Origin: an uncultured Prevotella sp.
GTDB lineage: Bacteria > Bacteroidota > Bacteroidia > Bacteroidales > Bacteroidaceae
NCBI GenBank assembly: GCA_905233555.1
Contig: CAJODF010000006.1
Span: 20,029 to 84,028 of the forward strand
Direction: 5' to 3'
DNA length: 64,000 nucleotides
The notes beneath the pieces are model-generated. The model did no database searches, was not told the origin of the DNA, and worked only from the letters and a program-made list of their open reading frames with translations. Made by a program: the position numbers and the translations under genes. Numbering within the stretch: the stretch's first letter is position 1; every line of letters starts with the position of its first letter. Below are positions 36,251 to 60,702 of this stretch, one piece after another.

Positions 36251-36355
36251 GAAAATTATGTTCAAGGGCGATGAACTTAAATTCAAAGTCGAAGAACATA
36301 TATTCAAAGGCGCTGAACATAAGTTCAAGACCGCTAAACGTAAACTACAAAGGAT
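36251..36355. repeat. Degenerate tandem array, 5 x 21 bp, core TGAACNTAANTTCA
   Basis: Units 36251-36271, 36272-36292, 36293-36313, 36314-36334, 36335-36355 align in register without gaps. Confidence 0.85.
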
Positions 36356-36420
36356 ATCAGAAACAAATACAACAAGGATTCAAAGAAAATACAATACGAA
36401 CCAATAAAAAACGGACGACT

Positions 36421-37080
36421 ATGCCAAAATACATCCTCAAAGAACTGCCGGAGGAGATGACTGACGGCAAGAAGCGAATCTATCCGAAGATAGAGAACTA
36501 TATGATGCACAGTTACGACGAAGTGCTGAAACACATGCAGGACTATGGTCCCTTCAAGGAAGGTACGATACGGGGTGTGTTCGACACCTTTGTCGAGACC
36601 ATGAAAGCCTGGATGCCAATGGGACACCCGTTGAAGATAGACGGACTCGGCGTGTTCACGCTCTCATTGGGGTTCGACGAAAGTTATCCCTCGGAGAGAG
36701 CCGAACAGGCAGAAGCCTCAGCAGCCGATACAGAAAGCGGAAAGGAACCCAAATCGAAATATCGCCATGTGTGCATCAAAGGGATCAACTTCAAGCCTGA
36801 TGCCGCCCTCATCAGCAAGATGAATCGCGAGAGCACGTTTGAGCGCTCTGAGCCAGACATCAGGAAAGCGAGGAAATCTGGATACAGCCTTGAGCAGCGC
36901 ATCGCCATCGCCCACGACATCATCAGCCGTAACGGGTTCATGACCCTTTCCGACTATGCCATCGCTACTGGTCAAAGCCGTACAGCAGCATCGATCGACC
37001 TGAAGGATTTGACCTCAGACCCCAACTCGGGCATCACCACACGAGGCAGTCACTCACACAAGGTGTGGATCAAATTGTGA
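36421..37080 (+). CDS. HU/HIG-type DNA-binding protein with C-terminal HTH-like extension
   Basis: HU-like fold segment (TIRGVFDTFVETMKAWMPMGHPLKIDGLGVFTLSL); start trimmed to MPKYIL. Confidence 0.8.
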   Translation: MPKYILKELPEEMTDGKKRIYPKIENYMMHSYDEVLKHMQDYGPFKEGTIRGVFDTFVETMKAWMPMGHPLKIDGLGVFTLSLGFDESYPSERAEQAEASAADTESGKEPKSKYRHVCIKGINFKPDAALISKMNRESTFERSEPDIRKARKSGYSLEQRIAIAHDIISRNGFMTLSDYAIATGQSRTAASIDLKDLTSDPNSGITTRGSHSHKVWIKL

Positions 37081-51836: not shown

Positions 51837-51907
51837 TGTTTGATTTTCCAGCACCGTATATTCCTGTACGGGCATCTTTTTTGCAGAGCACACTCTATTC
51901 TGCTCTC

Positions 51908-52078
51908 GCCTACGGCAGGTCTTCTGACTTTCCTCAGTCTGCTCTACCTTCCCAACAACTTGTCAGTGGTGTTATACAAGCAGACCTCTCAAAGGAGGAT
52001 TACAGCTGCAGGTACAGTTCCGGACTCTCACCGGATTCCCTTACATCAGGCGGCTACAGCCACCAGATTGCCATTATA
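51908..52078 (-). ncRNA. Cobalamin riboswitch
   Basis: Minus strand: AAGGGAATCCGGTGAGAGTCCGGAACTGTACCTGCAGCTGT...GGAAGGTAGAGCAGACTGAGGAAAGTCAGAAGACCTGCC; CAAAGATA (-7 box on the minus strand) at 52085-52092. Confidence 0.95.
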
Positions 52079-52160
52079 TGGGTGCAAAGATACAACTTTT
52101 TTCAATACGTTATGCATATTTCACGGATTTTTTTTAATTTTGCAGCAGAAAGAAGAGAAG

Positions 52161-52820
52161 ATGACGACGAAAAAGGCTTTTCTGATAGCAGCACCCACCA
52201 GCGGCTCTGGCAAGACGACGATTGCCAGAGGACTGATGGCGTTGCTCACGAAACAAGGATACAAGGTGCAGCCATTCAAGTGCGGACCAGACTATATCGA
52301 CACCAAGTTCCACGAGGCCGTAACAGGGCGTCCCAGCATCAATCTCGACACCTTTATGGCTACGCCAGAACATGTCCAGGACCTCTTTGCCCACTATGGC
52401 GCTGACGCTGATGTCTGTGTGGTAGAGGGAATGATGGGACTGTTCGACGGCTACGACCGAGAGAAAGGCTCTTCGTACGAGATAGCACGAATATTGGATA
52501 TCCCTGTCATCTTAGTGGTCGATGCCAAGTCGGCAGCCTATTCGATGGCAGCCCTGCTCTCTGGGTTTATCCATTTCAGGGAGGACATCCGCTTCGCGGG
52601 CGTTATATATAATAAGGTGGGATCGCAGAAGCATTTTGCGATGCTGCAACAAGTATGTGATGACTTGGGCGTTGAATGCTTCGGCTATTTACCCAAGTCA
52701 CCTGACCTCGAACAAGGCTCACGATATCTGGGCCTTGACTTCTCGGAAGAAACAAGGCATAAAGAGCTGATAAAACTATTGGAGGAACATGTAAGATGGC
52801 AGAGAATGTTAGCGCTCTGA
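52161..52820 (+). CDS. cobB: Cobyrinate a,c-diamide synthase, N-terminal ATP-binding half
   Basis: AAPTSGSGKTTIARGLM, FKCGPDYIDTKFHEAVTGRPSINLD, VEGMMGLFDGY; ends where the C-terminal half starts in another frame. Confidence 0.9.
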   Translation: MTTKKAFLIAAPTSGSGKTTIARGLMALLTKQGYKVQPFKCGPDYIDTKFHEAVTGRPSINLDTFMATPEHVQDLFAHYGADADVCVVEGMMGLFDGYDREKGSSYEIARILDIPVILVVDAKSAAYSMAALLSGFIHFREDIRFAGVIYNKVGSQKHFAMLQQVCDDLGVECFGYLPKSPDLEQGSRYLGLDFSEETRHKELIKLLEEHVRWQRMLAL

Positions 52821-53353
52821 TAGCACGTAATAAGGAGTCGTTTTCTTTTCTTTATCAGGAGACGATAGACAGTTTTGCTCAGGTATGTTTCTTCGACCCA
52901 GAGACGGAGGTGCCGTCGTTTGAGGGCATCGACCTGCTCTACTTGCCTGGCGGCTATCCAGAGAAACATTTGGAGGCGTTGGTAAAGAATGAGGCTTGTC
53001 GCAAGGCCATCAAGGACTATGCCGAACAAGGGGGCAGGGTCGTGGCAGAATGCGGAGGTATGATGTATCTCTGCCAAAGCATCGTGACAGACGAGGGGGA
53101 ATATCCCATGTGTGGCGTGCTACCCTATCAAATTTCTGCGCGCAAGGCAGAGCGCAAACTCTCGCTGGGCTATCGGCAATTTGTACTCGACGGCAAGACG
53201 TATCGAGGTCATGAGTTCCACTATACGCAGTTTATAGGCGAGACACCACAGAGCATCGTCCAAGTCTATAATGCCAAAGGCGAGCCTGTCCCCACGCCCG
53301 TATTCAAATATAAGAATGTCTTAGCCAGTTACACCCACCTCTATCAGATATGA
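52796..53353 (+). CDS. cobB: Cobyrinate a,c-diamide synthase, C-terminal glutamine amidotransferase half
   Basis: ARNKESFSFLYQE, LYLPGGYPEKH, VAECGGMMYL, LGYRQF; overlaps the N-terminal half by 25 bp, different frame. Confidence 0.88.
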   Translation: MAENVSALIARNKESFSFLYQETIDSFAQVCFFDPETEVPSFEGIDLLYLPGGYPEKHLEALVKNEACRKAIKDYAEQGGRVVAECGGMMYLCQSIVTDEGEYPMCGVLPYQISARKAERKLSLGYRQFVLDGKTYRGHEFHYTQFIGETPQSIVQVYNAKGEPVPTPVFKYKNVLASYTHLYQI

Positions 53354-54861
53354 AACCACTCCATCCCATTATGTTTGCTGGTACAGGCAGTGATGTTGGC
53401 AAAAGCATCGTAGCTGCTGCTTTCTGTCGTATCTTCAAGCAAGACGGCTATCAGCCTGCACCTTTCAAGGCACAGAACATGGCACTGAACTCATACGCCA
53501 CACCTGAGGGATTGGAGATCGGACGGGCTCAGGCTGTACAGGCCGAAGCGGCAGGCATCCCCTGTCATACAGACATGAACCCCCTGCTGCTAAAACCCCA
53601 AAGCGACCATACCTCGCAGGTTATCCTGAACGGCAAGCCCATCGGCAACAAGGATGCGTATGATTATTGGAGGCAGCATTCCTCCCCTAAGTTAGGGGAG
53701 GTCAGGAGGGGTCTGAACGAGCATATTGATTACCGCAAGGAAGTCTGCGAGGCCTTTGACCGTCTGGCAGCCCGCTATAACCCCATTGTAATGGAGGGTG
53801 CTGGCAGTATCGCAGAAATCAATCTGAAAGACCGCGACTTGGTGAATATGTCGATGGCCCGTCATGCGAAGGCTGATGTCATCTTGGTGGGCGACATCGA
53901 CAGAGGGGGTGTGTTTGCTTCCGTCTATGGGAGCATCGCCCTGCAAAGTCCAGAGGACAGAAAACTCATCAAGGGTATCATCATCAATAAGTTTCGTGGC
54001 GACATGCGCCTCTTCGAAGAAGGCCGACGGATGCTGGAAGACATCTGTGGCGTTCCCGTCCTTGGGGTGATACCTTATTATAATCATATACACATCGAGG
54101 AAGAAGACTCTGTGGCTTTGGCGCAGAAGTCGTTCGCGATGCAGCAGGGCAAGGTGAATGTGGCTGTCGTGATGTTGCAGCACCTTTCCAACTATACCGA
54201 CTTCGACGCGCTTGAACAAGACCCTCGCATCCATCTGTTCTACACCAACAATGTGGATGATATCCGTCAGGCAGACATCATCATCCTACCAGGCACCAAA
54301 TCCACACTCCACGATCTGTACGAACTGCGTCGCAACGGCTGTGCACAGGCCATCATCCGGGCCCATCGCAATGGGGCATCTGTGTTGGGCATTTGTGGCG
54401 GTTACCAGTTGATGGGTGTCGAGGTGTGCGACCCCAATCATGTAGAGGGCGATATCGACCGTCTGCCTGGTCTCGGACTGCTGCCTGTCACCACTACGAT
54501 GAGTGGCGAGAAACGGACTGTTCAGGTGGAATGCGAATATGGCAAAGGCTACGAGATACACATGGGCGAGACTCATCCCTTCGGTGAGGCAAAGGCCTCT
54601 CCATTACTGCACCTCAGCGACGGACGAGAGGACGGATACATCGTTGACAACAAATGTATGGGCACATACGTTCACGGCATTCTCGACAATGCGGCTTTTG
54701 TGGATTGCCTCTTGCAACCGTTCGCAGAGAAACTGAGCCAGACGGAAGCCTCTTTCGACTATGCCGCCTTCAAGGAAACACAATACGACAAGTTGGCTGA
54801 CCACGTGCGCCAACATGTCGATATGGAACGAATCTATCAGATATTAAGAGGTGATGACTAA
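53350..54861 (+). CDS. cobQ: Cobyric acid synthase
   Basis: MFAGTGSDVGKSIVAAAFCR, KAQNMALNSYAT, MEGAGSIAEINL, GICGGYQLMG. Confidence 0.95.
   Translation: MKPLHPIMFAGTGSDVGKSIVAAAFCRIFKQDGYQPAPFKAQNMALNSYATPEGLEIGRAQAVQAEAAGIPCHTDMNPLLLKPQSDHTSQVILNGKPIGNKDAYDYWRQHSSPKLGEVRRGLNEHIDYRKEVCEAFDRLAARYNPIVMEGAGSIAEINLKDRDLVNMSMARHAKADVILVGDIDRGGVFASVYGSIALQSPEDRKLIKGIIINKFRGDMRLFEEGRRMLEDICGVPVLGVIPYYNHIHIEEEDSVALAQKSFAMQQGKVNVAVVMLQHLSNYTDFDALEQDPRIHLFYTNNVDDIRQADIIILPGTKSTLHDLYELRRNGCAQAIIRAHRNGASVLGICGGYQLMGVEVCDPNHVEGDIDRLPGLGLLPVTTTMSGEKRTVQVECEYGKGYEIHMGETHPFGEAKASPLLHLSDGREDGYIVDNKCMGTYVHGILDNAAFVDCLLQPFAEKLSQTEASFDYAAFKETQYDKLADHVRQHVDMERIYQILRGDD
53681..53711. repeat. Palindromic repeat inside cobQ
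   Basis: cctcccctaa-g-ttaggggagg (perfect 10-bp arms) followed by tcaggagggg. Confidence 0.85.
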
Positions 54862-55804
54862 CGTGTTATCCTTACTGATTGGTTGGTTGCTCGACCTCGT
54901 CTTTGGCGACCCTTCCAGACTACCCCACCCGATTGTGTGGTTTGGTAAGGCAATCGCTTTCTGCGAGCATCGACTCAACAGAGGGAATCATCGTAAGTTG
55001 AAGGGAGCCCTAACGGCTGTATTCCTCATCGCAGCGACTTTTGCTCTCACATGGTTCCTGCGTTACATTTTAAACTCGTTGCTTCCATTTTGCGGCATCA
55101 ACCTTTTCACTTGCATCTTCGATGCCCTCATTATCTTCTATTGCCTCGCAGGAACAACACTAATCCGTGAGGTTCGGGCCGTCTTCCTAGCATTGGATCG
55201 CAGCCTTGAGGAAGGTCGCAAGCAGGTGGCTCGCATCGTTGGGCGCGACACCTCAGAACTCTCAGCCCAGGAAGTAAGGACAGCCGCCCTCGAAACGTTG
55301 GCAGAGAATCTAAGCGATGGTGTGATTGCGCCTCTATTTTGGTTTGCCATCCTTGGTACACCAGGTATGCTGGCCTACAAGATGGTGAACACCCTCGATT
55401 CAATGATAGGCTACAAGACGGAGCGCTATAAGGACTTCGGCTGCTGGGCTGCCCATATCGACGACATCGCTAACTACATCCCCGCCCGCCTGACGGCACT
55501 ACTCATGGTTATGGCTACAGGACGATTAGGACTATTGCGTTTCGTCCATAAGTACGGACGATGCCACGCCTCGCCCAACAGCGGCTATCCAGAAGCCGCC
55601 CTTGCTGGCATCCTCGATTGCCGCTTTGGCGGTCCTCATTACTATTTTGGCCAACTCTTCGACAAACCCTACATCGGCATCAACGATCGTCCCCTCACCA
55701 CCGCCGATATGAAGACCGCCATCCGCATCAACCGCACAGCCGAAATACTGATGGTGATTCTAACTGCCACAGTTTGTCTTTTTCATAGTAACTACCTCTC
55801 CTAA
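54851..55804 (+). CDS. cobD: Adenosylcobinamide-phosphate synthase (CobD/CbiB)
   Basis: LIGWLLDLVFGDPSRLPHPIVWFGK; ENLSDGVIAPLFW; NTLDSMIGYKTERYKDFG. Confidence 0.94.
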   Translation: MMTNVLSLLIGWLLDLVFGDPSRLPHPIVWFGKAIAFCEHRLNRGNHRKLKGALTAVFLIAATFALTWFLRYILNSLLPFCGINLFTCIFDALIIFYCLAGTTLIREVRAVFLALDRSLEEGRKQVARIVGRDTSELSAQEVRTAALETLAENLSDGVIAPLFWFAILGTPGMLAYKMVNTLDSMIGYKTERYKDFGCWAAHIDDIANYIPARLTALLMVMATGRLGLLRFVHKYGRCHASPNSGYPEAALAGILDCRFGGPHYYFGQLFDKPYIGINDRPLTTADMKTAIRINRTAEILMVILTATVCLFHSNYLS

Positions 55805-55807
55805 TTT

Positions 55808-55873
55808 GTTCCCACCGTGGGAATAAAACGTTCCCAGCCTGGGAATATAATGTTCCCACCTTGGGAATAAATA
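55808..55873. repeat. Tandem array A: 3 x 22 bp, unit gTTCCCAnnnTGGGAAtannat
   Basis: Units 55808-55829, 55830-55851, 55852-55873; each contains an inverted repeat. Confidence 0.92.
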
Positions 55874-55886
55874 ACGAGTTAAAGGG

Positions 55887-55952
55887 TTAGGGTTCAGCCC
55901 ACGAAGCCTTAGGGTTCAAGCCTCGAAGCCTTAGGGTTCAGGTCTCAAACAA
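55887..55952. repeat. Tandem array B: 3 x 22 bp, unit ttagggttcannccncgaagcc
   Basis: Units 55887-55908, 55909-55930, 55931-55952. Confidence 0.9.
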
Positions 55953-55982
55953 CTACGCCATTGGAATTCTCCACGTAATAAC

Positions 55983-56129
55983 GCAAGAGTATTTTGAAAT
56001 AAAGAAAGAGTATTTCTAAATAAAGCAAGAGTATTTCTGAATAAGGCAAGAGTATTCTGAAATAAGGCAAGGTTATTGCGCAATAATGGCAGGTTATTGC
56101 ACAATAATGGCAGGTTATTGAAAGCAGAA
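55983..56129. repeat. Tandem array C: 7 x 21 bp
   Basis: Units from 55983, 56004, 56025, 56046, 56067, 56088 and 56109; most contain palindromic cores such as TATTTTGAAATA and TTATTGCGCAATAA. Confidence 0.92.
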
Positions 56130-56599
56130 TTCTTATAGAGGTAAGATAGAAGGAAAGTAGAGGATAAGTAGAAGCAAAATAGATGCGTAATCATAACGAA
56201 AATCTTTCAGACAACCAGTAAAAACACACTTTTTAAGGCAAATAATCACAAAATTAGTAGAGGTAGAACCAGATTATATGATAAAAAAAATATATGCCAA
56301 ATATATGTCATTCAAATAATCTCCACACTTCGTTCAGACTATCCCTAAAGCTCGTTCGAATAGTTTGATAGGAACCAGCAATGACAACAAACAAGATTAT
56401 ACCCACCATTCTTGCCTACCGAGAGTCCAGAGATTCTGGGGCGTTGACTACCGCTACTGGCAAACCACCCGTTCATCACTGCGCGGATGCGTCATCTAGT
56501 GCAAACTTCTGTCACGTCTGTATCTTCCCATAGTCATTTATTATAATAACCCAATATCTTCGAGCCTACTATTCTTTCAATTATCATATAATGAAAGAA

Positions 56600-60380: not shown

Positions 60381-60527
60381 TAAAAAGGGGAAACGTTGTC
60401 TCACGACAGGTTGCCCCGTTGAACTTATATAATAATACACGTATGCGCAAAAAGCGCTGAACCAATAAAGATAATGCTTGCGCCTCACGCCCTTACATCG
60501 AGGGCCGTTTGGCATTTTAACCGAAAA

Positions 60528-60702
60528 AGGCTGGTCTTCAGACTTTCCTCCACTCCCAAGCGCCTTCTCGAGAATTCTCAATGGCGTTTTTGCTTAGGAG
60601 CCATAATGGAGTTCACTGCTGCGGGACAGTCGGAGATTCTCACTCACATTCCCAATTAATCGCGGCTAAGCGAACCTTTACGGGCGACTCTTTTCAAAAT
60701 CA
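60528..60702 (-). ncRNA. Cobalamin riboswitch
   Basis: Minus strand: GGTTCGCTTAGCCGCG...GGGAATGTGAGTGAGAATCTCCGACTGTCCCGCAGCAGTGA...GGAGTGGAGGAAAGTCTGAAGACCAGCC; TACCTTTG box at 60708-60715. Confidence 0.93.

What the first reader, a model, noticed from the sequence alone, without database searches (positions are those of the whole stretch)
55808..56129. Three consecutive families of 21-22 bp tandem repeats, mostly palindromic, in one intergenic region
Directly after the cobD stop, three arrays lie head to tail: A (3 x 22 bp, TTCCCAnnnTGGGAA), B (3 x 22 bp, TTAGGGTTCA...CGAAGCC) and C (7 x 21 bp, cores TATTTTGAAATA, TATTTCTAAATA, TTATTGCGCAATAA, TTATTGCACAATAA). Sequences differ between families but the period is constant at about two helical turns. 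Units in A and C keep an inverted repeat while the centre changes. Within C the palindromic core switches from a TATTT..AAATA type to a TTATTG..CAATAA type without losing register, which suggests units are copied and diverge as a set. The 22-bp period of A and B is not a multiple of 3, arguing against a coding role. Candidates: a helically phased protein-binding platform, an RNA of serial hairpins, or a repeat-generating process. I do not recognise this as a named system.
Basis: partly seen in the sequence, partly recalled or inferred. Interest (0 to 1): 0.85.

Follow-up and report, generated by a model that had tools for sequence, protein, structure and literature searches.

The report
Mobile element carrying phased palindrome arrays
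The repeats after cobD look like the core of a small mobile DNA element of rumen Prevotella that carries runs of 22-letter mirror-image units, whose spacing is fixed while their letters differ between species, and which turns up after genes, inside genes and even in phages.

Summary
In detail: A (22 bp x3), B (22 bp x3) and C (21 bp x7) are present, and no shuffle reproduces them. With a fourth, 11-bp array (D) and matching ends they form one ~475-bp MITE-like element (55792-56268) at the cobD stop. Copies with A-type arrays between inverted D-type ends occur in several other Prevotella genomes.

The dyad unit is X6-N3-X6'-N7 (22 bp, usually 2-4 units). X is lineage-specific (TTCCCA, GAAACA, CGGACT, others). 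Spacing is nearly invariant: 54 of 55 pairs in one genome. Bare arrays also sit in frame inside proteins, above all the CbiA interdomain linker (43 of 138 distinct linkers), and in a phage protein. At orthologous sites arms differ 3%, loops and spacers 28%, flanking codons 16.5%: DNA-level constraint across three reading frames, without the strand asymmetry that RNA hairpins predict.

Arrays are strongly enriched upstream of VapE-like helicase genes (17/29 versus 3%), which are themselves bounded by inverted repeats. VapE is a candidate partner; this is not shown. No literature name was found. The nearest known kind is BrickBuilt, a MITE containing a minisatellite.

The parts
55792..56268 (+). 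Whole MITE-like element (about 475 bp), left end truncated
   Evidence: Inverted ends 55792-55807 / 56251-56266; same layout in L106, L110, L353 and G653:C135
55792..55807 (+). Left tip ACTACCTCTCCTAATT; contains the last cobD codons and the cobD stop
   Evidence: 15 of 16 bases match inversely 56251-56266; the tip TTCTACCTCTACTAAAT is seen at the left end in L110
55808..55871 (.). Array A: 3 x 22 bp, TTCCCA-N3-TGGGAA-N7
   Evidence: family in 31 of 150 genomes of the genus
55887..55949 (.). Array B: about 3 x 22 bp, GAAGCC-N3-GGGTTC-N7, 5 of 6 palindromic pairs
55977..56120 (.). Array C: about 7 x 21 bp, TATTT-type units changing to TTATTG-N2-CAATAA-N7
   Evidence: same family at two more own-genome loci and in G037 and G082, always at spacing 21
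56126..56268 (+). Array D and right terminal region: 11-bp iterons (56135-56186), then a spacer, then tip AATTAGTAGAGGTAG (56251-56266)
   Evidence: Matches both flanks (inverted) of A-type arrays in loci from several genomes; BLAST matches in G563, G020, G653
54851..55804 (+). cobD, the gene whose 3' end abuts the element

Best explanation
The feature is one copy of a non-autonomous, MITE-like mobile element of Prevotella, about 475 bp, lying at the 3' end of cobD so that its left tip overlaps the stop codon. Its ends are inverted terminal regions built of 11-bp iterons plus a GTAGAGGTAG tip; the left one is truncated here. Its interior carries phased dyad arrays (A, B, C). Each dyad array is a series of inverted hexamer half-sites about one helical turn apart, most likely bound by a lineage-specific dimeric DNA-binding protein. 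That would explain why arms are conserved at the DNA level while loops and spacers drift, and why the period does not change. Arrays or whole elements are copied to new sites and tolerated 3' of genes or in protein linkers. Shown by sequence: layout, dispersed copies, inverted ends, DNA-level conservation of arms, location in genes. Inferred: active transposition, the bound protein, and that the VapE-like helicase loci beside many arrays are an autonomous or helper partner.
For: Same layout, iterons - 21-bp array - TTCCCA array - inverted iterons, in L106 and L110. Window D matches both flanks of A-type arrays, inverted, in loci of several genomes. Inverted repeats around 12 of 77 arrays versus 2 of 181 controls. 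A 497-bp copy at 90% identity at two loci of G131 and an array plus VapE duplication in G031. About 28 dispersed TTCCCA arrays in G094 at spacing 22. Presence/absence between sister species L011 and L012. Arms 15/504 versus loops and spacers 93/331 versus flanks 185/1120 differences. In-frame arrays in genes and in a phage protein. Arrays upstream of 17/29 VapE-like genes versus 33/1099, with inverted repeats around the gene in 23/25 loci.
Against: No transposition event between strains was seen and no target-site duplication was found. The left terminal region is missing in the window apart from 16 bp. Most arrays (65 of 77) have no detectable inverted flanks, so arrays may be independent units that happen to sit in the element. 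VapE flanks do not match D in sequence, and the array family follows the genome rather than the VapE protein.
Confidence: 0.6

Rival explanations
1. The arrays are chromosomal binding platforms (nucleoid organisation or regulator sites, as proposed for E. coli BIMEs), kept by selection at each site. The flanking 11-bp iterons are incidental or a second binding array.
For: Strong conservation of arms at orthologous sites, half-sites alternating about every 11 bp, and location just behind stop codons in G094.
Against: Arrays inside protein linkers and in a phage gene, patchy presence between close species, and copies that share flanking DNA.
Confidence: 0.2
2. The transcribed arrays act as serial RNA hairpins (3'-end protection, termination or processing).
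For: Palindromes, and positions 1-25 nt after stop codons in many cases.
Against: No excess of G.U over A.C on the sense strand (16 versus 20). Rfam finds nothing here. Many arrays lie inside coding regions. A fixed 22-bp period is not needed for hairpins.
Confidence: 0.1
3. The arrays are neutral minisatellites produced by replication slippage in tolerant DNA.
For: Tandem units; one case of a substitution shared by all three units (L273); some CbiA linkers hold unrelated repeats.
Against: Arms diverge about ten times less than loops and spacers. Arrays of one family are dispersed through genomes. 76% of unselected 22-bp arrays reach at least 5 of 6 palindromic pairs versus 4.6% of column shuffles.
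Confidence: 0.07

Closest known systems
BrickBuilt MITE of Porphyromonas gingivalis (PMC4596501)
   Same: A Bacteroidales MITE holding a ~22-23-bp tandem array between leader and tail regions with inverted-repeat ends; dispersed copies
   Different: BrickBuilt has one 23-nt brick sequence and is always intergenic. Here units are dyads whose hexamer differs between lineages and whose spacing is fixed, ends are made of 11-bp iterons, and arrays also lie in frame in genes
REP / BIME elements and RAYT transposases (PMC3733652)
   Same: Short palindromes downstream of genes, sometimes inside ORFs, sometimes supplying a stop codon; dispersed
   Different: REPs carry GTAG or CGTC tags and no fixed 22-bp tandem geometry. 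RAYT-like proteins are absent from array-rich G094 and from the own genome as held, and sit by other inverted repeats elsewhere
Rickettsia palindromic elements (from memory, not tested)
   Same: Palindromic mobile DNA inserted in frame in genes
   Different: RPEs are longer single palindromes without a tandem 22-bp geometry (recalled)
SaPI / SCCmec Rep helicases with iteron origins (PMC7581432)
   Same: The VapE-like protein near arrays matches PF05272 and 7pds 'Similar to D. nodosus vapE', E 9e-10; direct repeats lie beside its gene
   Different: SaPI iterons lie downstream of rep; here repeats bracket the gene on both sides. Origin function was not tested

Membership tests
MITE (non-autonomous element with terminal inverted repeats) | Terminal inverted repeats | tested here: met
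   Full inverted ends in L097, L106, L110, L353, L354, L350, L406, L411, L426; in the window only a 16-bp left tip remains opposite the right end
MITE (non-autonomous element with terminal inverted repeats) | Several dispersed copies without coding capacity | tested here: met
   Copies in G131, G136, G088, G095, G653
MITE (non-autonomous element with terminal inverted repeats) | Target-site duplication and a cognate transposase | tested here: inconclusive
   No duplication recognised in the L011/L012 comparison; a VapE-like partner is only associated
BrickBuilt | 23-nt bricks of one sequence, always intergenic | tested here: not met
   22/21-bp dyads of several sequences; in-frame copies in genes
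BrickBuilt | Tandem array between leader and tail with inverted ends | tested here: met
GTAG/CGTC REP with RAYT | Cognate RAYT in the genome, flanked by the repeat | tested here: not met
   No PF01797 hit in G000 (80% complete) or G094 (99% complete); 19 RAYT-like genes of other genomes are not flanked by these arrays
RNA hairpin element | Strand-specific G.U tolerance in arms | tested here: not met
   16 G.U versus 20 A.C in 43 sense-oriented arrays, p=0.62
VapE / SaPI-Rep iteron replicon | VapE-like helicase next to direct-repeat iterons | tested here: inconclusive
   True for VapE-like loci, but the window element holds no such gene and origin activity is not testable here

The most novel reading that the evidence does not exclude
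A new class of mobile element in which a VapE-like helicase, bounded by inverted repeats built of 11-bp iterons, moves itself and small relatives. The small relatives carry phased hexamer-dyad arrays whose geometry (X6-N3-X6'-N7, about 3 units) is shared while the hexamer is a lineage-specific address read by a co-evolving dimeric protein.
Probability: 0.25. Interest if true: 0.82.

Novelty: new variant of a known kind. Interest (0 to 1): 0.62.

Why it matters
It ties a puzzling repeat to a family of small mobile elements in a dominant rumen genus. It also shows palindromic DNA sitting in frame in protein linkers, with arms conserved at the DNA level across all three reading frames. The orthologous cbiA sites form a natural series (empty, TTCCCA, GAAACA, CGGACT and others) on which the change of a DNA address can be followed. 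The VapE-like loci give a concrete candidate for the missing partner, so mobility of these repeats becomes testable.

Tried and rejected
RAYT (REP transposase) as driver: PF01797 proteins seemed enriched in TTCCCA genomes, but G000 and G094 have none, and 19 RAYT-like genes have different inverted repeats (GGGGACAGGTT type) nearby. RNA hairpins: an early impression of sense-strand G.U wobbles vanished in the larger set (the reversed-sequence control printed there is invalid, because a reversed palindrome is still a palindrome). VapE protein as determinant of the hexamer: rejected, since an 86%-identical VapE has another array family nearby. Literature on such arrays in Prevotella or on DUF3874: nothing found in the held library. 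The GTCCG pattern was mis-spaced by me and was repeated correctly. The genome-level association with VapE (19 of 31 TTCCCA-positive versus 10 of 119 negative genomes, counted by hand) may partly be shared ancestry. Several tests were tried one after another on the same loci, and p-values are not corrected for that or for relatedness.

Full report
WHAT WAS CLAIMED AND WHETHER IT IS THERE. The window lies in contig C6 of a 2.57-Mb, 110-contig assembly whose nearest named relatives are Prevotella. Arrays A, B and C are real. None of 1000 dinucleotide shuffles of the region exceeds a score of 12, against 25, 26 and 73 observed. Two things were missed. B is also a dyad (GAAGCC-TTA-GGGTTC). A fourth array of 11-bp units (such as TAGAGGATAAG, 56135-56186) follows C.

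A GENERAL ARCHITECTURE. In 80 loci around cobD from other Prevotella-type genomes, tandem repeats peak sharply at period 22: 25 arrays, against 1 and 2 at periods 20 and 23; period 21 has 17, many of them 7-bp repeats. A search of 1.70 Mb for the exact hexamer pattern X..X'..X..X' gave 68 hits at period 22 and 15 at the next best period. Loop 3 and loop 7 dominate, so the unit is X6-N3-X6'-N7. Of 33 22-bp arrays in DNA not chosen by these patterns, 76% reach at least 5 of 6 palindromic pairs, against 4.6% of within-unit column shuffles. Families share the geometry and differ in the hexamer. TTCCCA occurs in 31 of 150 genomes of the genus, nearly always at spacing 22, with 54 of 55 pairs in G094. 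GTCCG-N7-CGGAC occurs in 10 of 17 genomes and GAAACA in 5 of 150. The 21-bp family TTATTG-N2-CAATAA occurs in the own genome, G037 and G082. The reversed-pattern control was zero in the paired searches. The TTCCCA pair was absent from all genomes outside the genus in a 396-genome phylum sample, which held only two genomes of this genus.

WHERE ARRAYS SIT. In G094 many lie within 25 nt behind stop codons. In many species an array lies in frame inside genes: the CbiA interdomain linker, an ABC-F-like ATPase, glycosidase-like proteins, an acyltransferase-like protein, an RNA methyltransferase-like protein (names by eye from sequence), and an 84-aa protein of four related integrase-bearing viral contigs. 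Of 138 distinct CbiA linkers, 43 carry a 22-bp array, 27 of them with the same linker length. Three units make 66 bp, so the frame is kept and each unit is read in a different frame. Sister species L011 and L012 differ by presence of the array.

WHAT IS CONSERVED. In orthologous cbiA arrays (14 pairs in five groups) arms differ at 15 of 504 positions, loops and spacers at 93 of 331, and flanking codons at 185 of 1120 (p = 3e-26 and 2e-17; pairs within a group are not independent). Because the three units use three reading frames, protein-level selection cannot easily explain this. Constraint, or repeated copying, acts on the DNA. Mismatches in arms show no sense-strand bias (16 G.U, 20 A.C), so an RNA-hairpin role is not supported.

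THE LARGER ELEMENT. Twelve of 77 arrays lie between inverted repeats, against 2 of 181 control positions. L106 and L110 show the full layout: CCTCTACTAAA-type iterons every 11 bp, a 21-bp array, a TTCCCA array, then inverted TAGAGGATAAG-type iterons. The window has A, B, C and the right-hand iterons. A 16-bp inverted match of its outer ends, ACTACCTCTCCTAATT at the cobD stop and its counterpart at 56251-56266, fits the tips seen in L110 and L353. Window region D matches the flanks of TTCCCA arrays, on both sides and inverted, in loci of several other genomes. G653:C135 shows D', A, D within 418 bp. G131 holds a 497-bp copy at 90% identity at two loci, and G031 holds a duplicated array plus part of a VapE gene. 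I therefore read the window feature as a MITE-like copy with a truncated left end. Active transposition is inferred.

A CANDIDATE PARTNER. Clustering the neighbours of arrays pointed to a ~410-aa VapE-like protein (PF05272 and DUF3874; PDB 7pds, E 9e-10). Within 600 bp upstream, 17 of 29 such genes have a 21/22-bp array, against 33 of 1099 other genes and 7 of 115 genes with long upstream gaps. In 23 of 25 loci inverted repeats bracket the gene, often made of ~11-bp direct repeats (by eye). SaPI-type Rep helicases use iterons next to their gene (PMC7581432). However, VapE flanks do not match D in sequence, and the hexamer follows the genome rather than the VapE protein. Partnership is therefore a hypothesis.

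KNOWN KINDS. BrickBuilt (PMC4596501) is the nearest: a minisatellite inside a MITE with inverted ends, but with one brick sequence and always intergenic. REPs (PMC3733652) share location and palindromy but not the geometry, and RAYT-like proteins were not found in array-bearing genomes G000 and G094. I place the finding as a new variant of a known kind.

Noticed in passing
window 52161-52820 and 52796-53353: cbiA is split into two overlapping ORFs in different frames; the same split recurs in at least 20 other relatives, whereas array-bearing or linker-bearing relatives have one fused ORF.
   Followed up: partly
L359-L388; L339:1439-2647 (own genome): VapE-like genes of about 400-440 aa are bracketed by inverted repeats in 23 of 25 loci and look like single-gene mobile elements in differing contexts.
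   Followed up: partly
window 36253-36343: Another 21-bp array with dyads (TTCA..TGAA), in the leader or start of an ORF (36271-37080) that looks by eye like an HU-type DNA-binding protein.
   Followed up: no
L142, L148, L150 (own genome): Direct 11-bp tandem arrays (e.g. GATTGGATGAA) at several own-genome loci; possibly solitary ends of related elements.
   Followed up: no
L204-L223: RAYT-like transposase genes lie next to other inverted repeats (GGGGACAGGTT..AACCTGTCCCC, GGGACGGTTC) in several genomes.
   Followed up: partly
L224, L225, L227, L228: Four related viral contigs carry the TTCCCA array in frame in an 84-aa putative membrane protein.
   Followed up: partly
window 51897-52090 and 60512-60694 (minus strand): Two cobalamin riboswitches flank the cobalamin genes.
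   Followed up: no
L018, L026, L058, L060, L064 and others: A separate class of 7-bp tandem repeats (periods 7, 14, 21) is common in relatives and inflates the period-21 peak.
   Followed up: no
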